DNA of 64,000 nucleotides from Natronoarchaeum rubrum (GTDB lineage Archaea; Halobacteriota; Halobacteria; Halobacteriales; Natronoarchaeaceae), in assembly GCF_024494695.1 (NCBI RefSeq), contig NZ_JANHDP010000003.1:526907-590906 (forward strand). Direction: 5' to 3'. How positions within the stretch are numbered: position 1 is the stretch's first letter; each line of letters begins with the position of its first letter. A program made the position numbers and the translations under genes. The notes beneath the pieces were generated by a model. The model was not told where the DNA came from, ran no database searches, and saw only the letters and a list, made by a program, of their open reading frames with translations. Below, piece by piece: positions 9,395 through 64,000 of the stretch.

Positions 9395-9586
9395 ACATCT
9401 AAAAGACTTGTGTTTGCGCTCAATGCGGGAGACCGACCGGTGCAGTACAGCCACTCCGGTCCGACCGGTGCGAGACACGCTTATCCACACAATCTCGGAG
9501 GATGGATTTGATGCGTGCCTTCTTTTCTGTTGAATCGTGGTCGAACTAACCGGTCGATACGTCCGCGTATCTAACAGTGTATTCGA

Positions 9587-9808
9587 TTAGCAGCAGCCGT
9601 CCCGTTCTGGCGTCCACTTACATGCATTGCCTGTCGTAAGGTCGTTTTCGTCGATGTAGGTCGACAGACAAGCGTAGTTACAGAAGTATGCAGGCGACCC
9701 ACAGTCGTCCACACAGTCACGGACACAGATGGGGTCGTGGTCGAAAATAAACGAATCACAGTACACGCACGTCTCGTCCGCGTGGGGAGTGGCGATAGTC
9801 GTGGACAT
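9587..9808 (-). CDS. Small cysteine-rich zinc-binding-like protein ending in Cys-Cys
   Basis: 73 residues with ten cysteines: TCVYC, ICVRDC, DDCG, FCNYAC, NACKW and the C-terminal DGCC. The spaced pairs resemble treble-clef or MYND-like zinc fingers, and small Cys-rich proteins of this sort (DUF7576-like) are common in haloarchaea. It lies seven bases downstream of the 125-residue hypothetical gene, suggesting an operon. The Cys-Cys terminus also occurs in the two small proteins at the end of the ars operon. Function unknown; metal or arsenite binding is an inference. Confidence 0.65.
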   Translation of the reverse strand: MSTTIATPHADETCVYCDSFIFDHDPICVRDCVDDCGSPAYFCNYACLSTYIDENDLTTGNACKWTPERDGCC

Positions 9809-9815
9809 ACTCGTT

Positions 9816-10193
9816 CTATGAGATGGACGACGGAAAGCGTTTCCTGAGGTAGCTAATAAGCTCCTTCCCCAGACGCTCGTCGAACTGACGGGGATGGTCG
9901 TTCTGACACGGGTGGTTCCAGCATGGCTTCTCCCGGAGCGCCCAACGCCGATTCCACTTTTCGACAGGGTACGAGGCGATTAAGCGCTCACAGAATGTAA
10001 CGAAGCCGATACTGCGTTCGTTCCGAAGCACAGCGAAATCGTCGAACGAAGGGAAGCGGCGACTGGAAAGGTCTGGACCAATTGCCAACACTGTGAGAAG
10101 TTGACGCGACCAGAAGTTGAGACTGGTACTCTCAATGCATACGCGTTCAGCCCACACGATCTTGAACGTCGTTTTTACCTCAGGGAACTTCAC
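9816..10193 (-). CDS. Hypothetical protein, unrecognised
   Basis: 125 residues, basic and rich in Trp and Arg (EKWNRRWALREKPCWNHPCQ), unlike the acidic proteins around it, which suggests foreign origin or an unusual role. The frame is uninterrupted and ends seven bases before the Cys-rich gene. The DNA of residues 13-27 (WAERVCIESTSLNF) overlaps a repeat that recurs at 19763-19803, so the N terminus may be repeat-derived and the true start may be internal. No family recognised. Confidence 0.4.
   Translation of the reverse strand: MKFPEVKTTFKIVWAERVCIESTSLNFWSRQLLTVLAIGPDLSSRRFPSFDDFAVLRNERSIGFVTFCERLIASYPVEKWNRRWALREKPCWNHPCQNDHPRQFDERLGKELISYLRKRFPSSIS
10115..10155. repeat. Imperfect dispersed repeat with hairpin, copy 1
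   Basis: Hairpin arms TTGAGA (10117-10122) and TCTCAA (10130-10135) around a 7-base loop, followed by TGCATACGCGTTCAGC. It matches 19763-19803 at roughly 85 percent, with the arms fully conserved and most differences in the loop and the 3' part. Confidence 0.65.
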
Positions 10194-10306
10194 CGACGTA
10201 TTCTCTTTCTACCGCACCGATTCTGATTCAGATCGGTGATGGTACCGCTGTACCCAGGGTTCAACTTGATTCCAGAGTTTCGAGGGGCTCGTCGAGGGAA
10301 ACATAT

Positions 10307-10333
10307 TAGTGCTCACTTGTATAAGCTAGTGCT
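10307..10333. promoter_or_regulatory. Putative ArsR operator/promoter of arsR-arsM
   Basis: The heptamer TAGTGCT occurs at 10307-10313 and 10327-10333, exactly 20 bases apart (two helical turns), flanking a TATA-like TTGTATAAGC. The second copy ends three bases before the arsR ATG at 10337. Spaced direct repeats over a promoter suit a dimeric repressor; autoregulation by ArsR is inferred. Confidence 0.5.
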
Positions 10334-10336
10334 GAT

Positions 10337-10696
10337 ATGACAGAGGATGCGATCACGGATGGGGCCACGGGAGGGGCCGAGACCTGCTGCACACCGCCCG
10401 GAGACGTCGACTCGGACGCGATGGCGACAGACCTCCAAGTACTGACCGCGATGGGGAACGACACACGATACGAGCTGCTTCGCCGAATCTCGAACGCCGA
10501 TGACGGCGTCTGCGTCTGTGATCTCGAAGCCGCCGTCGGCGTCAGTCAGAGCGCCGTCAGCCAAGCGCTCTCCCGCTTGTACACCGCAGGACTTGTCACG
10601 CGCCGCAAAGAGGGGTCCTGGCGGTACTACGAACCGACTGAAACGACCGCGGCCCTTCTCGAAACCCTCGACGAGCTGCGAGGTGCCCATGAGTAA
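10337..10696 (+). CDS. arsR: ArsR-family arsenic-responsive repressor
   Basis: 119 residues with one winged-helix domain (about 30-110). The sensor motif CVCDLEAAVGVSQSAVSQAL contains the paired Cys of arsenite-sensing ArsR proteins; a further CC pair sits near residue 17. The wing ends VTRRKEGSWRYYEP. It overlaps arsM by eight bases, so the two are co-transcribed and coupled. Direct repeats with a TATA box lie immediately upstream. As(III) should release it from DNA, as known for the family. Confidence 0.92.
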   Translation: MTEDAITDGATGGAETCCTPPGDVDSDAMATDLQVLTAMGNDTRYELLRRISNADDGVCVCDLEAAVGVSQSAVSQALSRLYTAGLVTRRKEGSWRYYEPTETTAALLETLDELRGAHE

Positions 10697-11531
10697 CGAT
10701 ACTACGGCGGCCGGTGACCGTGACCCCGAGGAGACCCGCGAGATGGTGCGCGAACGCTACGGGACTATCGCTTCGGACAGTCAGGACTGCTGTGGCGATG
10801 TCGGCATCGATACCACCGACGACGATGGGTGCTGTGAGGGCAACGCGGACGCGACCGGGAGCGAACGCCTTGGCTACGACGCCGACGATGTCGCGTCGGT
10901 CGCAGATGGCGCAGACCTTGGCCTCGGGTGTGGAAATCCGAAGGCGTTCGCCGAGATGACGCCCGGCGAGACAGTGCTCGACCTCGGCTCGGGTGCGGGC
11001 TTCGACTGCTTCCTCGCTGCAGAGGAGGTCGGCCCGGACGGCGACGTCATCGGCGTCGACATGACACCAGAGATGGTCTCGAAAGCGAGGGAAAACGTTG
11101 CGAAGAACGACGCCGTCAACGTCGAGTTTCGCCTCGGTGAGATCAGTCACCTGCCGGTTGCAGACGCGACCGTCGACGTCGTCATCTCGAACTGCGTCGT
11201 CAACCTCGCTCCGGAAAAACAACGGGTGTTCGACGACGCCTACCGCGTTCTCAAGCCCGGTGGCCGCGTCGCCATCTCGGATGTCGTCCAAACCGCCCCG
11301 TTCCCCGACGACGTCAAGATGGACCCGGACTCGCTAACTGGCTGTGTCGCCGGTGCGTCGACTGTCGATTCCCTTGAAGCGATGCTCGACAGTGCCGGCT
11401 TCGAAGCGATCGAGATAGCCCCTAAAGACGAGAGCACCGAGTTCATCAGCGATTGGGACGCTGATCGCGATCTCAGTGACTATCTCGTTTCTGCCACTAT
11501 CGAGGCCCGGAAACCAGCGCACCCCACCTGA
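10689..11531 (+). CDS. arsM: Arsenite S-adenosylmethionine methyltransferase
   Basis: 280 residues. Methylates As(III) with SAM to volatile or less toxic methylarsenicals. The Rossmann SAM site is VLDLGSGAGFDCFLAAEEVG with acidic GVDMTPEM; the ArsM cysteines appear in SDSQDCCGDVG, DGCCEGNA, ISNCVVNL and LTGCVAGAS. The ATG at 10689 lies inside the end of arsR (8-base overlap) and gives the normal ArsM opening (ETREMVRERYGTIA). Methylation offers a detoxification route that needs no efflux pump, important as no pump gene is seen here. Confidence 0.93.
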   Translation: MSNDTTAAGDRDPEETREMVRERYGTIASDSQDCCGDVGIDTTDDDGCCEGNADATGSERLGYDADDVASVADGADLGLGCGNPKAFAEMTPGETVLDLGSGAGFDCFLAAEEVGPDGDVIGVDMTPEMVSKARENVAKNDAVNVEFRLGEISHLPVADATVDVVISNCVVNLAPEKQRVFDDAYRVLKPGGRVAISDVVQTAPFPDDVKMDPDSLTGCVAGASTVDSLEAMLDSAGFEAIEIAPKDESTEFISDWDADRDLSDYLVSATIEARKPAHPT

Positions 11532-11605
11532 CTGATCAGCAGGTGTGGGCAGTTCTGCCCACTCAATAGCCCCTACAGAGAGTGTACGACCTCGTTGCGC
11601 CTGCG

Positions 11606-12037
11606 CTACGGTTCGTCTTGATGGACTTCGTCAAATAGGGCCTCGACGCGTTGCTCCACGTCGTCACGAATCTCGCGGACAGTATCAAGATCTTGTCCGT
11701 GAGGATCGTCTAGCGCCCAGTCCCGAACATCCACATCTTCTGCGTCCAGTTCCAGCGTCGAACAACCCATCGTAGCGACGATGTCGCACGATTCGAGCTC
11801 GTCAGTCGAGACTTCCCGCGGTGTTCGGTCGGAGAGATCGAGGTCCCGCTCTCGCATGACCGTGACGACTTCCTCGTGAACGTGCTCAGCCGGGTGTGTC
11901 CCCCCTGTGAGAATTTCGATGCTGTCCCCTAGCTCTCGCTGGTCACGCTCTTGTTCGGCGAACGCTGCCGACATTTGACTGCGACCGGCATTCTGGACAC
12001 ACACGAATCCCAACTTCGTCGTCGATTCCGTACCCAT
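11606..12037 (-). CDS. arsC: Arsenate reductase, low-molecular-weight phosphatase type
   Basis: 143 residues. Reduces arsenate to arsenite. The active-site loop CVQNAGRSQM is the C-x5-R P-loop of the LMW protein tyrosine phosphatase/ArsC fold, with the catalytic acid in WALDDPHGQD near the C terminus. A second Cys pair (ESCDIVATMGCST) could serve the redox relay known for thioredoxin-linked ArsC. It is convergent with arsM and carries its own promoter: a TTAAG box about 25-30 bases upstream and repeated ATGAGGAATA motifs at the start. Confidence 0.88.
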   Translation of the reverse strand: MGTESTTKLGFVCVQNAGRSQMSAAFAEQERDQRELGDSIEILTGGTHPAEHVHEEVVTVMRERDLDLSDRTPREVSTDELESCDIVATMGCSTLELDAEDVDVRDWALDDPHGQDLDTVREIRDDVEQRVEALFDEVHQDEP

Positions 12038-12084
12038 GAGGAATACCCTCTCTTAGGCCGTCTTAAGGGTTCATATGAGGAATA
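12036..12084. promoter_or_regulatory. Repeats over the arsC start and promoter
   Basis: The decamer ATGAGGAATA occurs at 12036-12045 (overlapping the minus-strand start codon) and at 12075-12084, 39 bases apart, with CTTAGGCCGTCTTAAG between them supplying the likely TATA box. Two identical sites spaced about four helical turns could bind a regulator such as either ArsR. Confidence 0.45.
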
Positions 12085-12208
12085 TCTCGCCCTATATAGG
12101 ACCAAATAGCTGCCGTGTCAGAGCTGGAGCCACTCTCAAACACTGACCACTGAAGCGGGTTCCAACGGAGCGGTGAGAACTAGCTCGCCGATCGCTCTCG
12201 TCGACTGG

Positions 12209-12601
12209 TCATAGCTCCCGCGATCCATCGAGGGCGATGAGGACAGCATTGGCGCGCGCTGTCGCACGATATTTTCGCCACTTCCCCTCTTTACGGCGTG
12301 TGACGAGTCCAGCATCGGTGAGCTGGGACAGGGCGTGGCTGATCGCGCTGTCGCTAACATCGAGTAACGGCGCAAATTCGCAGACGCAGAGTTCCTCGCC
12401 AGCGACGTGGAGGATACGAACGATCTTGTACCGGGTCTCGTTCGCGAGCGCCGATAGCAGCCCGACATCTTGGTCCAGCGCTGGCCCACCCGCGGCCGCA
12501 TCAATCTCTTCGAGTTCCGCCAGACGCTGGGAGACCTCCTCGTCACCACAGCCACCCCGTTCGTCGGCGAGATACCGCTGTAGCCGCTCAGTCGATGACA
12601 T
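12209..12601 (-). CDS. Second ArsR-family repressor
   Basis: 130 residues; winged-helix domain in the second half with the sensor motif LCVCEFAPLLDVSDSAISHAL and wing VTRRKEGKWRKYRA, very like the first ArsR. An N-terminal extension of about 45 residues contains a GGCGDEE loop. ATG 12601 is chosen (MSSTERLQRYLAD); an ATG at 12607 adds two residues. A TTAATCC box about 25 bases upstream fits a leaderless start. It is divergent from arsD-arsA about 325 bases away and likely controls that operon or itself. Confidence 0.88.
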   Translation of the reverse strand: MSSTERLQRYLADERGGCGDEEVSQRLAELEEIDAAAGGPALDQDVGLLSALANETRYKIVRILHVAGEELCVCEFAPLLDVSDSAISHALSQLTDAGLVTRRKEGKWRKYRATARANAVLIALDGSREL

Positions 12602-12885
12602 ACACATCGATTGAGCAGATAGTGGATTAAGCATTGTGGAGCGACCTGCGAGCCACGCGCATTCGATTGACATCCGATCATTTTAGGATTCTATAAGATG
12701 GCTCCAGAAATACATTGGCAGTAATCTTCTATTTTGACGTGTTTTGAGGCCCTAAACGCCGCACATGTTCTGAATCGCACGTTGGGCCACGTCCGCGCTG
12801 AGCCGAAGAGCTTATGACCATGATTGAATAACTGCTCAACTGAATGCAAGGCAACTCTGTCCACTCCGTGATCCATGATAGCTGC
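12602..12885. other. Intergenic region, no supported gene
   Basis: About 280 bases of lower-GC DNA between the second arsR and arsD. A 78-residue minus-strand frame starting with TTG covers much of it but has no recognisable domain. An ATTCTATAAGATGG tract near 12690 could be a promoter. Nothing else is supported. Confidence 0.5.
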
Positions 12886-12902
12886 ATTGTCGACCAGACA
12901 AT
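12886..12902. promoter_or_regulatory. Perfect palindrome upstream of arsD, putative ArsR operator
   Basis: ATTGTC-GACCA-GACAAT has 6-base perfect arms and a 5-base centre, ending 24 bases before the arsD ATG at 12927, where an archaeal TATA/BRE would lie. Position and symmetry fit binding by an ArsR dimer. Not the same motif as the repeats upstream of arsR. Confidence 0.55.
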
Positions 12903-12926
12903 TGAGCGAGCGATCTATTCTCACCA

Positions 12927-13256
12927 ATGACTGAACTCACCCTGTACGAGGAGGCGATGTGTTGCTCCACCGGCGTCTGTGGTCCTGACCCCGACGAAGA
13001 GCTCGTTGAAGTCAGCGCCGCCCTCGATCAACTCGAAGCGGAGTTCGAGGACGTCGACGTCTCGCGGGCGAACATGCAGCACAACATCGATCAGTTCCTC
13101 GAAACGCAGCGCATCTACGATCTGGTCGAGGAACACGGCCCCTCGATCCTGCCGATCACCGTCGTCGACGACGAAATCGTCGCCAAGTCCGAGTACCTCT
13201 CGTACGACGAACTCGCGGCAGCACTCGAAACCACTACCCAGACACAGGAGGCCTAA
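12927..13256 (+). CDS. arsD: Arsenic metallochaperone ArsD
   Basis: 109 residues, thioredoxin-like fold. The N terminus ELTLYEEAMCCSTGVCGP carries the conserved Cys12-Cys13-x4-Cys18-type As(III) site of ArsD. ArsD binds cytosolic arsenite and hands it to ArsA. It is separated from arsA by only three bases. A perfect palindrome lies about 25 bases upstream. Later vicinal Cys pairs of some ArsD proteins are absent, as in many homologues. Confidence 0.93.
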   Translation: MTELTLYEEAMCCSTGVCGPDPDEELVEVSAALDQLEAEFEDVDVSRANMQHNIDQFLETQRIYDLVEEHGPSILPITVVDDEIVAKSEYLSYDELAAALETTTQTQEA

Positions 13257-13259
13257 CGC

Positions 13260-15191
13260 ATGAGCACAACGCCCACCGACGCGCGAGCGGTCGTCGAGCC
13301 GACGAGTGATGAGACCGAGTTCGTCTTCTTCAGCGGCAAAGGCGGCGTCGGCAAGAGCACCGTGAGCTGTGCGACGGCAACTTGGCTCGCCGACAACGAC
13401 TACGAGACGCTGCTGGTGACGACCGACCCTGCGCCGAATCTCTCGGACATCTTCGGCCAAGAGATCGGCCACGAGGTCACCGCGATCGACGACATCGAGA
13501 ACCTTTCGGCCATCGAGATCGACCCGGACACTGCCGCCGAGGAGTACCGCCAAGAGACGATCGAACCGATGCGCGAACTGCTCGGTGAGGACGAAATCGA
13601 GACGGTTGAAGAACAGTTGAACAGTCCCTGCGTCGAGGAGATCGCCGCATTCGATAACTTCGTCGACTTCATGGACAGCCCGGAGTACGATGTCGTCGTC
13701 TTCGACACCGCTCCCACGGGACACACCATCCGTCTGATGGAGCTGCCCTCCGACTGGAACGCCGAACTGGAGAAAGGCGGCTCGACCTGCATCGGGCCGG
13801 CAGCCTCGATGGAGGAGCGCAAACAGGACTACGAGCGTGCCATCGACACGCTTCAGGACGACGAACGAACCTCATTCGCGTTCGTCGGCAAGCCCGAGGA
13901 CTCTTCGATCGACGAGATCGAGCGCAGTGCAAGCGACCTCGGCGACCTCGGGATCGAGTCCCAACTGCTGATCATCAACGGCTATCTCCCCAGTTCGGTG
14001 TGTGAGGATCCGTTCTTCGAGGGGAAGCGGGAAGACGAGCAGGCCGTTATCGAGCGCGCACGGACGGAGTTCGGCGCCGACGCGATGGCGACGTACCCAC
14101 TCCAGCCGGGCGAGATCGCAGGGCTCGACCTACTCGCAGATGTCGGCGGCGTCCTGTACGACGGCGACGAGGCGACCGTCGATGTCGGGACGGCGACTGA
14201 CATTGACGCCGAAATCGCAGTCGACTTCGAGTCGATGGCTGACGCCGAGGCAGTCGCCGATCAGCTGCAACCGGGCGACGAGACACGGTACCTCTTCTTC
14301 ACCGGGAAGGGCGGCGTCGGCAAGAGTACGATCGCTTCGACGGCGGCGACGAAGCTCGCCGAAGCTGGCCACGAAACGCTCGTCGTCACAACCGACCCGG
14401 CCGCCCACCTCGAGGACATCTTCGGCGAACCGGTCGGCCACGACCCGACCTCGGTCAGCCAGGCGAACCTCGACGCCGCGCGGATCGACCAGGAGAAAGC
14501 GCTGGAAGAGTACCGCACGCAGGTCCTCGACCACGTCACCGGAATGTACGAGGACAAAGAGGACACTCAGATCGACGTGGACGCGGCGATCGCAAACGTC
14601 GAAGAGGAACTGGAGTCACCGTGCGCCGAAGAGATGGCCGCCCTCGAGAAGTTCGTGAGCTACTTCGACGAAGACGGCTACGACGTCGTCGTCTTCGACA
14701 CCGCCCCCACGGGGCACACGCTCCGACTGCTCGAACTTCCCTCTGACTGGAAGGGCTTCATGGACCTCGGGTCGCTGACGAAGGGCGCCGCCCCCGCGAA
14801 AGGCGACCAGTACGACGAGGTCATCGAGACGATGAAAGACCCTGAACAGAGTACGTTCGCGTTCGTGATGTACCCCGAGTACACCCCGATGATGGAGGCC
14901 TACCGGGCCGCTGCAGACCTCGAAGATCAAGTCGGGATCGAAACCTCGCTGGTGGTAGCGAACTACCTGCTCCCCGAGGAATACGGCGACAATGCCTTCT
15001 TCGAGAACCGCCGCGCCCAGCAGGCGGAGTACCTCGGCGAGATCAGCGATCGGTTCAACGTGCCGATGATGCTCGCCCCTCTGCGTCAGGACGAGCCAGT
15101 CGGACTGGACGAACTGCGCGCGTTCGGTGAAGAGATCACCGGGCTGGACGATGTCACCGAGGAGGCGGAACAGGAGGTGACAGCGTCGTGA
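13260..15191 (+). CDS. arsA: Arsenite-translocating ATPase ArsA (tandem two-domain)
   Basis: 643 residues made of two homologous ATPase halves. Each has a deviant Walker A (FSGKGGVGKST at about residue 25 and FTGKGGVGKST at about 348), a VTTDPA switch, and the DTAPTGHT signature. The metal-site cysteines appear in SPCVEEIAAF, STCIGPAAS and SPCAEEMAALEKF. ArsA normally drives the ArsB pump with ATP. It follows arsD directly, and its stop overlaps the GTG of the next gene (GTGA). No ArsB or Acr3 is seen in the window, so its membrane partner must be elsewhere or absent. Confidence 0.95.
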   Translation: MSTTPTDARAVVEPTSDETEFVFFSGKGGVGKSTVSCATATWLADNDYETLLVTTDPAPNLSDIFGQEIGHEVTAIDDIENLSAIEIDPDTAAEEYRQETIEPMRELLGEDEIETVEEQLNSPCVEEIAAFDNFVDFMDSPEYDVVVFDTAPTGHTIRLMELPSDWNAELEKGGSTCIGPAASMEERKQDYERAIDTLQDDERTSFAFVGKPEDSSIDEIERSASDLGDLGIESQLLIINGYLPSSVCEDPFFEGKREDEQAVIERARTEFGADAMATYPLQPGEIAGLDLLADVGGVLYDGDEATVDVGTATDIDAEIAVDFESMADAEAVADQLQPGDETRYLFFTGKGGVGKSTIASTAATKLAEAGHETLVVTTDPAAHLEDIFGEPVGHDPTSVSQANLDAARIDQEKALEEYRTQVLDHVTGMYEDKEDTQIDVDAAIANVEEELESPCAEEMAALEKFVSYFDEDGYDVVVFDTAPTGHTLRLLELPSDWKGFMDLGSLTKGAAPAKGDQYDEVIETMKDPEQSTFAFVMYPEYTPMMEAYRAAADLEDQVGIETSLVVANYLLPEEYGDNAFFENRRAQQAEYLGEISDRFNVPMMLAPLRQDEPVGLDELRAFGEEITGLDDVTEEAEQEVTAS

Positions 15192-15556
15192 GCGAAGCTG
15201 TATCGGAGGAGCCAGCCGTCGAAGCGTCGTTGCAGGCGTTCACCGAGACGCTCTGCGACTCAGAGACCTACCAGCAGTTCGTGGACGCAAGCGAGCAACT
15301 CGAAGCCGACGATGAAGCGCAGTCACTGCTCGAAACGTACCAGCAAAAACAACAGCAGCTGCAAGGAGACGAGTTCGACTCGTCGGTCATGAGCGATCTT
15401 CAGGAACTCCAGACTGAGCTCTCGAACAACGAGACGATCCAACAGCATCGGGCAGCGCAGGAGGAACTCGTCGCCCTGCTCAAGCAGACGAACGATGTAG
15501 TCAGCGAGCAGATCAGACGGGAGTTCGCGCAGTCACTCGGAGGTGGGTGCTGTTGA
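15188..15556 (+). CDS. hcsL: Halo-CC-star protein HcsL (YlbF-like), ars operon
   Basis: 122 residues starting at a GTG that overlaps the arsA stop. Almost entirely helical and Gln/Glu-rich like YlbF/YmcA-type proteins (ETLCDSETYQQFVDASEQLE), and ending in LGGGCC. I recall this as the long halo-CC-star family found beside ArsA in haloarchaea; the name is from memory. The terminal vicinal Cys pair is a plausible arsenite or thiol-exchange site. Coupled to arsA upstream and hcsS downstream by overlapping start/stop codons. Its exact role is undescribed as far as I know. Confidence 0.78.
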   Translation: MSEAVSEEPAVEASLQAFTETLCDSETYQQFVDASEQLEADDEAQSLLETYQQKQQQLQGDEFDSSVMSDLQELQTELSNNETIQQHRAAQEELVALLKQTNDVVSEQIRREFAQSLGGGCC

Positions 15557-15738
15557 GCTCGTCCGACGAAGACGTGCTGGCTGCCGCCGAGGCGCTCGGG
15601 GAGGACCTCGATGTGGCGCAGTCGGAGGCGACGGCGGCTGAGTTCGAGTCGCTGTTGATCGAATGCAATGAAACGATTAGTGACGAGATCGGTCTCGAGT
15701 ACGGCGCCGTCTGCGACGCCGGAAGCGACTGTTGCTAA
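15547..15738 (+). CDS. hcsS: Halo-CC-star protein HcsS, ars operon
   Basis: 63 residues, overlapping the end of hcsL by ten bases. The best start is the GTG at 15547; a TTG two codons later is possible. The C-terminal half (FESLLIECNETISDEIGLEYG) resembles the C-terminal half of hcsL (LKQTNDVVSEQIRREF), so it looks like a shortened paralogue. It too ends in Cys-Cys (GSDCC). Last gene of arsD-arsA-hcsL-hcsS. A function with ArsA or in As(III) transfer is inferred from context only. Confidence 0.75.
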   Translation: MLLSSSDEDVLAAAEALGEDLDVAQSEATAAEFESLLIECNETISDEIGLEYGAVCDAGSDCC

Positions 15739-15760
15739 CAGCAGCTCTGGTGGCTACTCC

Positions 15761-15770
15761 AATTTTTCTT
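15761..15770 (+). terminator. T-rich terminator of the arsDA operon
   Basis: AATTTTTCTT about 25 bases after the hcsS stop. Archaeal termination usually occurs at oligo-T on the coding strand; no strong stem precedes it. Confidence 0.45.
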
Positions 15771-15800
15771 ATATCAGTAGACGGATGCTGATAGAGGGTG

Positions 15801-15830
15801 AGCTGTCAGTATCCAAGCTGTCAGTATCCA
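15801..15830. repeat. Perfect tandem duplication of a 15-mer
   Basis: AGCTGTCAGTATCCA is repeated back to back at 15801-15815 and 15816-15830, in non-coding DNA after the ars operon. A recent slippage event or a paired binding site. Confidence 0.9.
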
Positions 15831-16154
15831 TCTATTGCAGAAGTGTCTGTGTCCAATTCTTCGATGACACGGAGAGGGTATGATCGATGTCGAGTACATC
15901 AAAAAAGTGGTGAGTGTGGACGTGGCGCCGATCAGCAGACATAAATCGAGTTCTAACCACAGCGGATAAAAGGCACGCATCAAATTCATCCTCCGAGGTT
16001 GTGGTATCCACGACTGACGAATTTTATATATCAGCATATGATTTATTACTTGTTGGCGCTCCGGCAATGGCACTCGAATCGGCCGACGGGCGGGACCGCT
16101 CGGAGAGCGCGAGAAACAGTAGTGTTAAATTCCGAGAGCCGGGTACTGTCGCGT
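15831..16154. other. AT-richer intergenic region at the right edge of the ars island
   Basis: About 320 bases without a supported gene. It includes a very AT-rich stretch (TTTTATATATCAGCATATG near 16021-16040) and a GTGTTAAATTCC promoter-like box about 26 bases before the zinc-ribbon gene. Short frames on both strands lack domain signals. Confidence 0.5.
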
Positions 16155-24169: not shown

Positions 24170-26560
24170 ATGACAGAGAAGTCGGACCAGGGCGCGGAGG
24201 CGGGAGGCGGAGAGCGGCGCGAGCTGACCGCTCGCTTCTCCGTTCCCGAGATGGATTGCCCGTCCTGCGCCGGGAAAGTCGACAAGAGCCTCAAGCGGGT
24301 CGACGGCGTGCTCGACGCCACCGAGCAGCCGACGACCGGGACGGCGACGGTGACGTACGATCCAGATCGCACCGACCGGTCGGACCTCGTCGCGGCGATC
24401 GAGGGCGCCGGCTACGAGGTCGTCGGAGGCGACGAGGAACCGGCGGACGGCGAAGAGGGAAGCGACGGCGTCGACGTCGCGCCGCCCGCCGAAATCTGGA
24501 CGAGCACGCGCGCGATCAAAACGTGGATCGGCGCGGTGCTGGTCGCGCTCGGCTTGCTGTTCGAGTTCGTCCTGACGGGACTCAACCCCGAGATCGCGAG
24601 CGTTCTGGACTACCCGCTCTCGCTCGCGGACGTGCTGTTCCTCGGCGCCGTCGTGGCCAGCGGGCTGCCCGTGATCCGGGGCGGCTACTACTCGGCGCGC
24701 CAGCGCAGCCTCGACATCGACCTGCTGATGGGGACCGCGATCATCGCGGCGACGGGGATCGGCTACTTCGTCGAGGCGGCGACGCTGGCGGTTCTCTTTA
24801 GCATCGCGGAGCTGCTGGAAGATTTCGCGATGGATCGGGCGCGGGACTCGCTGCGCGAGCTGATGGAGTTGTCGCCCGACGAGGCGACGGTCCGGCGCGG
24901 TGGAGAGGAGATCACGGTGCCGGCGGAGGAGGTCGAGGTCGGCGAGACGGTCGTCGTCCGACCGGGCGAGAAGATCCCCCTCGACGGCGTCGTCAGAGAC
25001 GGCGAGAGCGCGGTCGACGAGTCGCCGATCACCGGCGAGAGCGTGCCGGTCGACAAGACCGCTGGCGAGGAGGTGTTCGCCGGATCGATCGCCGCGGAGG
25101 GGTATCTGGAGGTCGAGGTCACCTCGACGGCGGGCGACTCGACGCTCTCGCGGATCATCGAGATGGTCCAGGGCGCCCAGGCCGAACGGACGGAAACCGA
25201 GCAGTTCGTCGACCGGTTCGCGGGCTACTACACGCCGGTCGTCGTCGTGCTGGCGATCCTGACCGCCGCCGTCCCGCCGCTGCTGATCGACACCGCTGCG
25301 ACGGTCGAGATCGCCGGCCTCGCCCACTCGTTCGAGGGCGACTGGGGGACGTGGTTCGTCCGGGGGCTAACCCTGCTGGTGATCGCCTGCCCCTGTGCGT
25401 TCGTGATTTCGACGCCCGTCTCAGTCGTCTCGGGGATTACCAGCGCCGCGAAGAACGGCGTCCTCATCAAGGGCGGCAACTACCTCGAAGCGATGGGCGA
25501 GGTCGACGCCGTCGCGCTGGACAAAACCGGGACGCTCACCAAGGGCGAGTTGGCGGTCACCGACGTCGTCCCGGCGGACGGTGGCGACGCCGACGACCTG
25601 CTGCGACACGCCGCCGCGCTGGAGCGGCGAAGCGAGCACCCGATCGCGCGGGCGATCCTCGACCGCGCCGAGGAGGCGAGCGTCGACGACCTGCCCGAAC
25701 CGTCGGCGTTCGAGAGCCTGACCGGCAAAGGCGTCCGCGCCGATCTCGACGGGCGGACGGTCTACGCCGGCAAGCCCGCGCTGTTCGAGGAACTGGGCGT
25801 CGATCTCTCGGCCGCTGGCGTCGGCCCCGCCGGCAGCGAGCGCACCGACGGCGGGACCGTCGCTGCGACGCCGTCGGACGGCGAGCGCGGCGCCGACGTC
25901 GAGACCGTCGCCGACCGCGTTCGGGCGCTCGAACGCGAGGGCAAGACGGTCGTTCTCGTCGGGACCGACGCGGAGTTGCTCGGCGTCGTCGCGGTCGCCG
26001 ACGAGGTGCGGCCCGCCTCGAAGCGCGCCGTCGAGCGCCTGCGCGACCTCGGCGTCGGCCGGGTCGTGATGCTCACCGGCGACAACGAGGGCACCGCGCG
26101 GGCGATCGCCGAGGAGGTCGGCGTCGACGAGTACCGCGCCGAGTTGCTGCCCGACGAGAAGGTCGACGCCGTCGAGGCGCTGCGAGCGGAGTACGGCAGC
26201 GTCGCGATGGTCGGCGACGGCGTCAACGACGCGCCGGCGCTGGCGACCGCGAACGTCGGCGTCGCGATGGGCGCGGCGGGCACCGACACGGCTCTCGAAA
26301 CCGCGGACATCGCGCTGATGGGTGACGACGTCGGGAAACTGCCGTACCTGTACGATCTTTCGCACAAGGGCAACGCCGTCATCCGGCAGAACATCTGGTC
26401 GAGCCTCGGCGTCAAGGCGCTGCTGGCGGTCGGCGTCCCGCTGGGCTACGTCTCGGTCGCGCTGGCGGTGGTTGTCGGCGACATGGGAATGAGCCTCGGC
26501 GTCACCGGCAACGCGATGCGGCTCTCGCGCGTGACGCCCGATCGGTTCGAGGACGAGTAG
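24170..26560 (+). CDS. P1B-type heavy-metal-transporting ATPase (Zn/Cd/Pb-like)
   Basis: 796 residues. Pumps soft metal ions out of the cell using ATP. One HMA domain with CPSC at residues 30-33; about eight membrane helices; CPC metal site at 407-409; phosphorylation DKTGTLTKG at Asp451; hinge MVGDGVNDAPAL. Near the end the DMG motif (GDMGMSLGVTGNAMRL) resembles the D-x-G of ZntA-type pumps, so Zn, Cd or Pb is more likely than Cu, though copper cannot be excluded. The region 545-590 has a low-complexity insertion in the nucleotide domain. Preceded by a Cys-rich Bat regulator. Confidence 0.9.
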   Translation: MTEKSDQGAEAGGGERRELTARFSVPEMDCPSCAGKVDKSLKRVDGVLDATEQPTTGTATVTYDPDRTDRSDLVAAIEGAGYEVVGGDEEPADGEEGSDGVDVAPPAEIWTSTRAIKTWIGAVLVALGLLFEFVLTGLNPEIASVLDYPLSLADVLFLGAVVASGLPVIRGGYYSARQRSLDIDLLMGTAIIAATGIGYFVEAATLAVLFSIAELLEDFAMDRARDSLRELMELSPDEATVRRGGEEITVPAEEVEVGETVVVRPGEKIPLDGVVRDGESAVDESPITGESVPVDKTAGEEVFAGSIAAEGYLEVEVTSTAGDSTLSRIIEMVQGAQAERTETEQFVDRFAGYYTPVVVVLAILTAAVPPLLIDTAATVEIAGLAHSFEGDWGTWFVRGLTLLVIACPCAFVISTPVSVVSGITSAAKNGVLIKGGNYLEAMGEVDAVALDKTGTLTKGELAVTDVVPADGGDADDLLRHAAALERRSEHPIARAILDRAEEASVDDLPEPSAFESLTGKGVRADLDGRTVYAGKPALFEELGVDLSAAGVGPAGSERTDGGTVAATPSDGERGADVETVADRVRALEREGKTVVLVGTDAELLGVVAVADEVRPASKRAVERLRDLGVGRVVMLTGDNEGTARAIAEEVGVDEYRAELLPDEKVDAVEALRAEYGSVAMVGDGVNDAPALATANVGVAMGAAGTDTALETADIALMGDDVGKLPYLYDLSHKGNAVIRQNIWSSLGVKALLAVGVPLGYVSVALAVVVGDMGMSLGVTGNAMRLSRVTPDRFEDE

Positions 26561-61979: not shown

Positions 61980-62879
61980 TTACAGCTCGACTGCGTCCTC
62001 GTCGCTGTAGGAACTCAGCGACTGCGGGACGTTGACGACCGTCACGGCCTGGCTGCCGGACTGGGTGACGATCCGCACCGTGGCTTCCTCACCCTCCTGC
62101 AGGTTGCGGAGGTCGGCGCTGTCGTCGTTCGCAAGGTCGAGCATGATCGTGAAGCGGTCCTGCCGACTGGTCAACACGGGCACCGTGTTATCAGGATCGG
62201 TCGTCCCCTCGACAGCGAAATCACCAACGCCAGCACTCGCCATCTCGGCGTAGCCGAGCGTGGCTTCGCCGTCGGGGCCGATGTACTCGACGGACGCGCC
62301 TTCGAGGTCAATCTCGTTGGCGCCCGGCGACTGCATCACCGTCATGTTGATATGGCCGACCTGATTAGTACCGGTCCCAGAGATCAAGACGCTGGTCAAG
62401 GTTGCGGTAGCGTCAGATCCAGTGTTGTACGTTCCACTTGCGCTCGTCCCGTCATCTGCAGTCAAAGTGAAACTTTCCGTGTCACTGATTGTGACGCTGT
62501 AACTGTCTTGGGCAGTCGTGTCCCAGGTTCCGACATCAGATCCTGCGACACTGATGTCCAGGTCCCCGCTGTAATCTGAGGATCCAGACAGGGTGAACGA
62601 GGTGTTACTATCGTGAAGCGTGGCCTCCACGTCCTGCGTTGCTCGATCCACTTCATCGATCTGGCCGATTGAGCTGATGACGAGCACCTGGTTCGACACC
62701 TGTGCTTCGGAGTCTTCGCTGGTCGCGGATGCCTGATTTTGCAGATAGCCCGCGGTGTTGATCAGTACGCTCGCTGCGATCGCGGCGACCAGGATCATCG
62801 CGATGAAGATGATCAGGGTCTCGATCCCGACCTGCCCGCGGTCGGTATCTCTCGAAAAGTCTGGAAGTGTAACGTCCAT
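61980..62879 (-). CDS. Archaellin (archaeal flagellin) 1
   Basis: 299 residues. The class III signal ends DTDRG with Q following, so the archaeal prepilin peptidase would cut before [20 protein letters not shown], the hydrophobic filament core helix. The middle (80-190) is Ser/Thr/Asp rich and variable, the end ([26 protein letters not shown]) is conserved in the paralogue. A second archaellin follows upstream with an identical 5' part. Motility filament structural subunit; many Asn-x-Ser/Thr sites allow glycosylation. Confidence 0.95.
62516..62873 (-). repeat. Archaellin direct repeat, copy 1 (358 bp)
   Basis: Every base I compared from 62516 to 62873 matches 63643-64000 at a constant offset of 1127. 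The repeat covers the signal, core helix and first variable region of the protein. Confidence 0.92.
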
Positions 62880-63112
62880 GCTGTGTATCCTCGTGATTGT
62901 TGTCCGACCACCGTTCCGGCGGTCGTTGCATCTCTGTTACAACGTATATGAAAAAAGGATAGTACCTACCAGTACAGGAGAGAGGATTCAGCTAGACCTC
63001 TCTAATTAGGCCACCATTTGTCTCGGCCGAGAACAAACGTTACAGAGAGTTCTACGGCGCGATTTACGTTCTTCTGAATCGACAGCAAAAAGAAATCCGT
63101 TGAAAGAGCCGT
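62880..63112. other. Gap between the two archaellins
   Basis: 233 bases without a gene. It has AT-rich parts (a minus-strand T6 run near 62952-62957 followed by CATATACG) that could terminate archaellin 2 and promote archaellin 1. Confidence 0.4.
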
Positions 63113-64000
63113 TTACAACTCGACTGCGTCCTCGTCGCTGTAGGAGCTCAGTGACTGCGGGACGTTGACGACCGTGACGGCCTGGCTACCGGACTGGGTG
63201 ACGATGCGGACCGTGGCTTCCTCACCTTCCTGCAGGTTGCGCAGGTCGGAGTTGTCGTCGTCGACGAGTTCGACGGTGATCGTGAAGCGGTCCTGACGCG
63301 AGGTCAGAACGGGCACCGTGTTGTCAGGGTCGGTCGTCCCCTCCACAGCGAAGTTGCCTTCGGCGGCGGTTTCGGCGTAGCCGAGCGTGGCTTCGCCGTC
63401 GGGGCCGATGTACTCGACGGACGCGCCTTCGAGGTCGATCTCGTTGGCGCCCGGCGACTGCATCACCGTCATGTTCATCAGGCCGACCTGATTGGTCCCG
63501 GTCCCGGCGATCGAGACGCCAGTCAGGGTTGCGGTAGCGTCAGATCCTGCGGTGTACGATCCACTACCGCTCGTTCCATCATCTGCGATTAGTTCAAAAC
63601 TTTCTCCATCATTGATTGTAACGCTATAACTACTTTGTGCGCTCGTGTCCCAGGTTCCGACATCAGATCCTGCGACACTGATGTCCAGGTCCCCGCTGTA
63701 ATCTGAGGATCCAGACAGGGTGAACGAGGTGTTACTATCGTGAAGCGTGGCCTCCACGTCCTGCGTTGCTCGATCCACTTCATCGATCTGGCCGATTGAG
63801 CTGATGACGAGCACCTGGTTCGACACCTGTGCTTCGGAGTCTTCGCTGGTCGCGGATGCCTGATTTTGCAGATAGCCCGCGGTGTTGATCAGTACGCTCG
63901 CTGCGATCGCGGCGACCAGGATCATCGCGATGAAGATGATCAGGGTCTCGATCCCGACCTGCCCGCGGTCGGTATCTCTCGAAAAGTCTGGAAGTGTAAC
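63113..64000 (-). CDS. Archaellin (archaeal flagellin) 2, 5' end cut by the window edge
   Basis: At least 296 residues; only the first two codons are missing beyond 64000, judging by the identical copy. Same signal peptide and core helix as archaellin 1; the middle segment differs ([21 protein letters not shown] against [21 protein letters not shown]), and the C-terminal third is nearly the same. Tandem archaellins are usual in haloarchaea and act together in the filament. Confidence 0.95.
63643..64000 (-). repeat. Archaellin direct repeat, copy 2 (358 bp, runs off the window)
   Basis: The second copy of the repeat described at 62516-62873; identity may continue past 64000. Outside the repeat the two genes diverge clearly, so the block is sharply bounded. 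Confidence 0.92.

What the first reader, a model, noticed from the sequence alone, without database searches (positions are those of the whole stretch)
9587..15738. Arsenic island without an efflux pump but with three Cys-Cys-ended small proteins
arsR, arsM, arsC, arsR2, arsD and arsA are present yet ArsB/Acr3 is not. Three small proteins in the island (9587-9808, hcsL, hcsS) all end in Cys-Cys, as arsenite-binding tails might. ArsA may work with these proteins and methylation in place of an ArsB pump, an undescribed arrangement.
Basis: partly seen in the sequence, partly recalled or inferred. Interest (0 to 1): 0.75.

Follow-up and report, generated by a model that had tools for sequence, protein, structure and literature searches.

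The report
ArsA with two thiol-tailed partner proteins
Salt-loving archaea carry a fixed four-gene arsenic-resistance unit in which the ArsA motor protein is made together with two small proteins ending in two cysteines; it is often found in genomes where no standard arsenite pump was recognised, and the two small proteins, whose role is unknown, are good candidates for a missing part.

Summary
The genes are real and correctly placed; no Acr3, ArsB or ArsP was found in the window. Two of the three CC-ended proteins, HcsL and HcsS, belong to a conserved haloarchaeal unit, arsD-arsA-hcsL-hcsS: of 68 HcsL loci, 67 have ArsA, 65 HcsS, 58 ArsD. The third (9587-9808) is a widespread zinc-finger-like family, found in none of the 68 fetched loci. 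Pump-less arrangements are known: Halobacterium NRC-1 carries the same unit, and a review says arsB plays no role there and a novel transporter was proposed. In 194 haloarchaeal genomes ArsA_halo and HcsL go together with one real exception; full Acr3 occurs in 8 of 36 genomes with ArsA_halo and 98 of 158 without (kinship uncorrected). HcsL has the RicA/RicF fold; in Bacillus, tail cysteines of that pair hold an Fe-S cluster on a partner. A stand-alone paralogue ends GGCCxD (20 of 20 fetched), so the tail is not arsenic-specific. Best reading: HcsL/HcsS are ArsA partners presenting paired thiolates, probably for As(III); binding and exporter are untested. The island is an insertion bounded by 34-nt inverted repeats.

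The parts
9488..9521 (+). left terminal inverted repeat of the inserted island
   Evidence: 34 nt, 94% complementary to 15970-16003; the 22-nt core with up to 3 mismatches had 0 matches in shuffles
9587..9808 (-). 73-aa Cys-rich, zinc-finger-like protein ending CC; passenger of the island, not part of the ArsA unit
   Evidence: no Pfam or NCBIfam hit; 57 of 120 listed homologues end CC; in 0 of 68 fetched HcsL loci; one homologue named by a source as similar to small CPxCG-related proteins
10337..10696 (+). arsR1, ArsR/SmtB regulator
   Evidence: NF033788 72.5 bits over cut-off 55
10689..11531 (+). arsM, arsenite methyltransferase
   Evidence: NF008823 359 bits over cut-off 263
11606..12037 (-). 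arsC-like low-molecular-weight phosphatase/arsenate reductase
   Evidence: PF01451 105 bits; arsenate reductase models match below cut-off
12209..12673 (-). arsR2, divergent regulator gene upstream of arsD-arsA-hcsL-hcsS
   Evidence: NF033788 80 bits over 55; an ArsR2-type hit in 56 of 68 loci
12927..13256 (+). arsD, arsenite metallochaperone with Cys12, 13, 18
   Evidence: NF033727 116 bits over 90; the three Cys in 59 of 59 aligned ArsD, window included
13260..15191 (+). arsA of haloarchaeal type (ArsA_halo)
   Evidence: NF041417 1184 bits over 800; Cys124, 177, 455 align with E. coli R773 Cys113, 172, 422
15188..15556 (+). hcsL, Com_YlbF/Ric-fold protein ending GGGCC
   Evidence: NF041416 161.7 bits over 140; PF06133 61.9 bits over 23.9; model closest to RicA/RicF
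15547..15738 (+). hcsS, short relative of the HcsL C-terminal half, ending CC (GTG at 15547 or TTG at 15553)
   Evidence: NF041415 92 bits over 55; hhalign 91.9% to HcsL residues 64-122
15970..16003 (-). right terminal inverted repeat of the inserted island
   Evidence: closest held genome has 159 nt in place of window 9410-16108

Best explanation
arsD-arsA-hcsL-hcsS encodes one soluble arsenite-handling machine. ArsD brings As(III) to ArsA, whose three-cysteine metalloid site is intact. HcsL and HcsS, translated from genes that overlap arsA and each other, form a RicA/RicF-like pair whose flexible C-terminal CC tails present vicinal thiols. They dock on ArsA and take up or hold As(III)/Sb(III) released by its ATP cycle, passing it on to a membrane exporter that is not encoded in the unit and need not be ArsB or Acr3. 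Shown here: gene linkage, overlap, fold, tail conservation, ArsA and ArsD ligand conservation, lower frequency of full Acr3. Inferred: complex formation, As(III) on the tails, hand-over, unknown exporter.
For: Linkage: ArsA in 67 and HcsS in 65 of 68 HcsL loci; 4-nt arsA/hcsL overlap in 62 of 67, hcsL/hcsS overlap in 65 of 65; the same 24 plasmid records carry both. Class survey: 38 of 194 genomes have ArsA_halo or HcsL over cut-off, 34 have both over cut-off, and 37 have both if two contig-cut or shortened arsA genes and one HcsL at 134 bits are counted. Tails: 111 of 112 HcsL end CC. Fold: Com_YlbF, best PDB matches RicF/RicA (6prk, 6prh, 2pih); tail disordered in the model (pLDDT < 50 at 120-122). 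Precedent: RicA and RicF tail cysteines ligate a cluster shared with RicT, and removing the tails breaks the complex (PMC6751060, abstract and passages). RicT/PSP1 was found in 0 of 29 genomes, so another partner is needed. In 5 of 68 loci a protein behind hcsS has its own Cys-rich tail ending CSPGCC or CGPGCC; the 3 of these tested are Rdx family: an unrelated fold with the same tail in the same place. ArsA ligands intact. NRC-1 has arsD-arsA-hcsL-hcsS on pNRC100.
Against: The CC tail is not arsenic-specific: 20 of 20 fetched stand-alone paralogues end GGCCxD (the 20 were picked from the listed matches, not at random). 7 of 65 HcsS lack the full CC end. One genome (G151) has ArsA_halo with no HcsL, HcsS or ArsD in the 13 kb fetched, and its ArsA keeps all five cysteines, including Cys248, so no ArsA residue was found that tracks HcsL. 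No interaction or binding was measured or predicted. The Acr3 contrast is not corrected for kinship and weakens to p 0.077 with distant Acr3-like proteins counted. Structural matches to Ric are at Foldseek E 2e-3 to 1e-2, none at or below 0.001.
Confidence: 0.5

Rival explanations
1. HcsL/HcsS are a Ric-like sensor. Their tails ligate an Fe-S cluster (or zinc), alone or with ArsA, and tune ArsA or the ars transcripts according to thiol or metal stress; they do not carry arsenic.
For: Same fold and cysteine-tail layout as RicA/RicF, where the tails hold a [4Fe-4S] cluster. A stand-alone relative matches the HcsL model in about two thirds of genomes without an over-cut-off HcsL (104 of 158, one of them a true HcsL just under the cut-off); 20 of 20 fetched have the tail.
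Against: RicT is absent in 29 of 29 genomes. The pair is bound to arsA. A different fold (Rdx) shows the same tail in the same operon.
Confidence: 0.22
2. Ordinary ArsA-driven efflux with the pump encoded elsewhere in the genome (Acr3, a divergent Acr3-like protein, an ArsP permease or another family). HcsL/HcsS are minor accessories.
For: 9 of 68 loci have Acr3 and 9 an ArsP-like permease within about 8 kb. 9 of 29 genomes with HcsL have a full Acr3 and 24 of 29 an ArsP_1 protein. A divergent Acr3-like family (about 142-158 bits, 5 of 29 genomes) keeps a Cys and a Glu that align with Acr3 (that these residues matter is recalled). The literature treats ArsA as able to work with Acr3 (PMC2963123, passages). 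Family searches can miss exporters: the PF02040 search did not match the E. coli control genome nor H. salinarum G023, although the review says NRC-1 has a gene called arsB.
Against: 28 of 36 ArsA_halo genomes lack full Acr3; 7 of 36 lack any Acr3-like match and any ArsP_1 match at E<=1e-20. ArsP is not enriched with ArsA_halo (26 of 36 against 105 of 158, p 0.56). A review reports that NRC-1 arsB plays no role in resistance (PMC3600143, passages).
Confidence: 0.2
3. Pump-free detoxification: ArsA plus CC proteins store arsenite and ArsM methylates it, with no exporter at all.
For: No known exporter family found in the island or window. A review states that NRC-1 lost arsenite resistance when arsM was deleted (PMC6205960, passages). 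H. salinarum (G023) has no Acr3, ArsP or PF02040 match at E<=1e-3.
Against: ArsM is found in only 16 of 68 loci. Storage needs no ATPase of the ArsA type. Unknown exporters cannot be excluded by known families.
Confidence: 0.08

Closest known systems
Halobacterium sp. NRC-1 pNRC100 ars clusters (arsADRC, arsR2M)
   Same: Same genes, including hcsL and hcsS after arsA; no pump annotated in the 15-kb stretch read; review reports that arsB plays no role and that a novel transporter was proposed (PMC3600143, passages)
   Different: The passages read do not mention the two CC genes; there the second arsR and arsM lie downstream of hcsS rather than upstream of the unit
RicA/RicF (YmcA/YlbF) of Bacillus subtilis
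   Same: Com_YlbF fold, two small related proteins, conserved C-terminal cysteines
   Different: Partner RicT not found; HcsS lacks the N-terminal half; encoded with ArsA; cofactor unknown
ArsDAB / ArsDA-Acr3 efflux systems
   Same: ArsD metallochaperone and two-domain ArsA with the As(III) cysteines
   Different: No pump gene in this island; two extra proteins translated with ArsA
NCBIfam halo-CC-star proteins HcsL (NF041416), HcsS (NF041415) and ArsA_halo (NF041417)
   Same: All three models match over their cut-offs
   Different: The models as seen here give names only; no paper in the library holds 'halo-CC-star'

Membership tests
ArsA ATPase | two ArsA ATPase halves with P-loops | tested here: met
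   PF02374 546 bits, three matched stretches; aligned end to end with R773 ArsA
ArsA ATPase | As(III) ligands Cys113, 172, 422 (ligand role recalled) | tested here: met
   window Cys124, 177, 455; 59 of 59 haloarchaeal ArsA aligned, window included
ArsAB or ArsA-Acr3 efflux system | a pump gene in the operon or genome | tested here: inconclusive
   none found in the window; own genome not held; closest held genome has no full Acr3 (33.7 bits)
Com_YlbF / Ric family | Com_YlbF domain and helical fold | tested here: met
   PF06133 61.9 bits over 23.9 for HcsL; 6prk, 6prh, 2pih among the top structural matches, prob 1.00, E 2e-3 to 1e-2
Ric complex | RicT (PSP1) partner | tested here: not met
   PF04468 in 0 of 29 genomes with HcsL; the search did match the B. 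subtilis control
Ric complex | C-terminal cysteines ligate a [4Fe-4S] cluster | not testable with these tools
   cysteines present; cluster needs biochemistry
ArsD metallochaperone | Cys12, Cys13, Cys18 | tested here: met
HcsL/HcsS (NCBIfam) | score over curated cut-off and terminal CC | tested here: met
'three CC arsenite proteins' set | 9587-9808 linked to the ars unit | tested here: not met
   0 of 68 fetched loci

The most novel reading that the evidence does not exclude
ArsA in haloarchaea does not drive a pump at all. With HcsL and HcsS it is a soluble ATP-driven loader that builds As(III)- or Sb(III)-thiolate complexes on paired CC tails, a Ric-fold storage and hand-over device that stands in for Acr3; the tail chemistry was taken from an older stand-alone Com_YlbF protein.
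Probability: 0.1. Interest if true: 0.85.

Novelty: new variant of a known kind. Interest (0 to 1): 0.58.

Why it matters
ArsA is normally explained as the motor of a membrane pump. In haloarchaea the motor's constant companions are two small Ric-fold proteins, and full Acr3 tends to be missing. A review says a novel exporter was proposed for Halobacterium NRC-1; hcsL and hcsS sit in that very operon, so the question can be tested with a two-gene deletion. No tested role of a Com_YlbF protein in archaea or in arsenic handling turned up in the listings of two searches; one paper lists an archaeal YlbF only as up-regulated in aerial hyphae (PMC10067837, passages).

Tried and rejected
Rejected: 9587-9808 as a member. 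Rejected: ArsA Cys248 as an HcsL-specific docking residue, since the HcsL-less ArsA of G151 keeps it. Rejected: ArsP as the general partner exporter (p 0.56). Considered: a fixed ArsM role (16 of 68 loci). Considered: the heavy-metal P-type ATPase at 24170-26560 as the missing pump; no evidence beyond nearness. A similar-looking ORF family, judged by its sequence only, lies in 5 of 68 loci. Led nowhere: neighbours of the stand-alone paralogue gave no consistent partner. Wang et al. 2004 (PMC400623) is not held, so its results are cited through reviews. The HcsS model is of low confidence (pLDDT 72.5, pTM 0.48) and is not used.

Limits and rows left out. HcsL loci L009 (masked stretch), L063 and L068 (broken or read-through frames) have no readable CC end and are counted as misses (65 of 68). 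Searches were given 29 genomes, reached from 29 of the 68 loci. The class sample is 194 genomes drawn by the tool; the closest-genome search used 391. The PF02040 control did not ring in the E. coli genome at either threshold, so ArsB absence is less certain than Acr3 absence. The ArsP-like permease of L035 matches two other NCBIfam efflux models below their cut-offs, so its substrate is open. Gene counts per locus are minima, since 20 of 68 loci are shorter than 16 kb. Genome lists for the tables were copied by hand.
Full report
What is there. The window is haloarchaeal DNA, GC about 0.68, falling to 0.55-0.64 across the island. The island reads arsR1-arsM, then arsC and arsR2 on the other strand, then arsD-arsA-hcsL-hcsS. 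hcsL starts inside the arsA stop, and hcsS inside the end of hcsL. No Acr3, ArsB or ArsP was found in the window by Pfam scans of 30 proteins or by tblastn of the window with Acr3-family and ArsP-like queries.

How the island is bounded. A pair of 34-nt inverted repeats, 94% complementary, lies at 9488-9521 and 15970-16003; their 22-nt core had no match in shuffles. Of 391 genomes searched, the closest by one 1.4-kb stretch covering the HMG-CoA synthase gene is G258 (93%). It has the two flanks 159 nt apart where the window has 9410-16108, and G197 has them 111 nt apart. The island is best read as an insertion. Similar repeats occur in 37 and 41 haloarchaeal plasmid records. Of seven such hits inspected, two lie directly beside an annotated transposase, one of which was tested and has a DDE domain. 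None of the island proteins scanned is a transposase.

The third CC protein. The 9587-9808 protein has no Pfam or NCBIfam match. Of 145 relatives 120 were listed; 57 of these end CC and 63 do not. None of the 68 fetched HcsL loci carries it. In G150, which has its own ArsA-HcsL unit, the homologue, with a CC end, lies on another contig. It is inside the inserted segment but is not part of the ArsA unit.

The real unit. A pattern-based scan of one genome for each of 84,980 species gave 68 loci encoding HcsL. ArsA was found in 67, HcsS in 65, ArsD in 58, ArsR2 in 56, ArsC in 45 and ArsM in 16 (20 loci are shorter than 16 kb, so these are minima). ArsA and HcsL overlap by 4 nt in 62 of 67 loci; in the other five the mechanical ORF starts further upstream. 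HcsL and HcsS overlap in 65 of 65. In the plasmid collection the 24 records with HcsL are the same 24 that carry the haloarchaeal ArsA. In 194 haloarchaeal genomes, ArsA_halo passes its cut-off in 36 and HcsL in 36, with 34 in common. Of the four others, G076 has HcsL at 134 bits with a CC end beside arsA, G044 and G211 have contig-cut or shortened arsA genes beside HcsL, and only G151 has an ArsA_halo (57% identical) without HcsL, HcsS or ArsD in the 13 kb fetched.

What HcsL and HcsS are. Both are NCBIfam 'halo-CC-star' families; no paper in the library holds that term. HcsL is a Com_YlbF protein (PF06133, 61.9 bits). An HcsL profile finds RicA and RicF of B. subtilis (2pih 3.6e-6, 6prk 4.5e-5, 6prh 8.9e-5). 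Its model (pLDDT 85.6) has Ric and other Com_YlbF chains as best structural matches (prob 1.00, TM 0.64-0.69 for the Ric chains, but E only 2e-3 to 1e-2). HcsS aligns with the C-terminal half of HcsL (hhalign 91.9%). In B. [quoted passage not shown] RicT/PSP1 was found in 0 of 29 HcsL genomes, while the B. subtilis control did ring.

Where the tail comes from. In the class survey 140 of 194 genomes match the HcsL model; the listed matches below the cut-off are mostly at 55-73 bits and come from a second, stand-alone relative. Twenty of these, chosen from the list and not at random, were fetched, 9 of them on contigs over 1 Mb: 20 of 20 end GGCC-x-D. The tail is therefore not special to the arsenic setting. 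In favour of a metalloid role, 5 of 68 loci have behind hcsS a different protein with a Cys-rich extension ending CSPGCC or CGPGCC; the three tested are Rdx family.

ArsA and ArsD. Window ArsA Cys124, 177 and 455 align with R773 Cys113, 172 and 422 (ligand role recalled) and are invariant in 59 of 59 aligned haloarchaeal ArsA; so are Cys37 and Cys248. ArsD Cys12, 13 and 18 are invariant in 59 of 59.

Is there a pump? ArsB (PF02040, E<=1e-10) is in 2 of 194 genomes, neither with ArsA_halo. In 29 HcsL genomes at E<=1e-3 there are two weak matches of 24 and 28 bits. This search has a weak point: its control did not ring in E. coli, and it found nothing in H. salinarum G023 although a review says NRC-1 has an arsB. 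Full Acr3 is in 106 of 194: 8 of 36 with ArsA_halo against 98 of 158 without (Fisher p 2.7e-5). This ignores kinship, and with any Acr3-like match at E<=1e-20 it is 19 of 36 against 110 of 158 (p 0.077). ArsP shows no link (26 of 36 against 105 of 158, p 0.56). Seven of 36 ArsA_halo genomes have neither an Acr3-like match nor ArsP at E<=1e-20, among them G023. Near the window's own lineage, G150 has the unit and no full Acr3, G197 has full Acr3 and no ArsA_halo over cut-off, and G258 has no full Acr3 and no DNA match to the unit's arsA-hcsL stretch like that of G150. Yet 9 of 68 loci have Acr3 and 9 an ArsP-like permease within about 8 kb, so HcsL/HcsS are not simply a replacement for a pump.

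Known background. pNRC100 of Halobacterium NRC-1 carries arsD-arsA-hcsL-hcsS, with arsR and arsM downstream. A review reports that arsADRC gives As(III) and Sb(III) resistance, that chromosomal arsB plays no role, and that a novel transporter was proposed (PMC3600143, passages). [quoted passage not shown] ars operons with arsA in genomes without arsB were counted before (PMC2963123, passages). The primary NRC-1 paper is not held. The pump-less arrangement is thus known; in the passages read the two CC genes are not mentioned.

Conclusion. The most likely reading is an ArsA complex with a Ric-like HcsL/HcsS pair whose CC tails provide thiolate ligands, probably for As(III) or Sb(III), feeding an exporter not yet named. 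Binding, complex and exporter are inferred. The main rival is an Fe-S or zinc role as in Ric. The finding is ordinary in its genes and in lacking a local pump, and new in pointing to a conserved partner pair with a clear test.

Noticed in passing
window 9488-9521 and 15970-16003: 34-nt inverted repeats bound a 6.5-kb island in which no transposase was recognised; similar repeats lie beside annotated transposases in two plasmids and about 0.4 kb from arsR-arsM in Halomarina sp. BND7.
   Followed up: partly
L069-L088 (20 loci): A stand-alone Com_YlbF relative of HcsL ending GGCCxD, common in haloarchaea, with no steady gene neighbour; its partner is unknown.
   Followed up: partly
L010 8716-9021, and likewise in L013, L016, L017, L018: Rdx-family protein (3 of the 5 tested) with a Cys-rich tail ending CSPGCC or CGPGCC directly downstream of hcsS, in loci that also hold Acr3.
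   Followed up: partly
L014 5099-5581 and relatives in 11 other loci: A small cupin-like ORF (family guessed from its sequence, not confirmed) near arsD, in L014 between arsR2 and arsD; 12 of 68 loci.
   Followed up: no
L089 4657-5652, and in L090-L094: Divergent Acr3-like permease keeping a Cys and a Glu that align with Acr3, with no ars gene recognised in the fetched 8-11 kb; possible second arsenite exporter of haloarchaea.
   Followed up: partly
window 24170-26560: Heavy-metal P-type ATPase with an HMA domain about 8 kb from the island.
   Followed up: no
L103 5234-7144: Lone ArsA_halo (57% identical) without ArsD, HcsL or HcsS in 13 kb, in a genome with full Acr3.
   Followed up: partly
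window 61980-63925: Two very similar ORFs side by side; the one tested is archaellin family.
   Followed up: no
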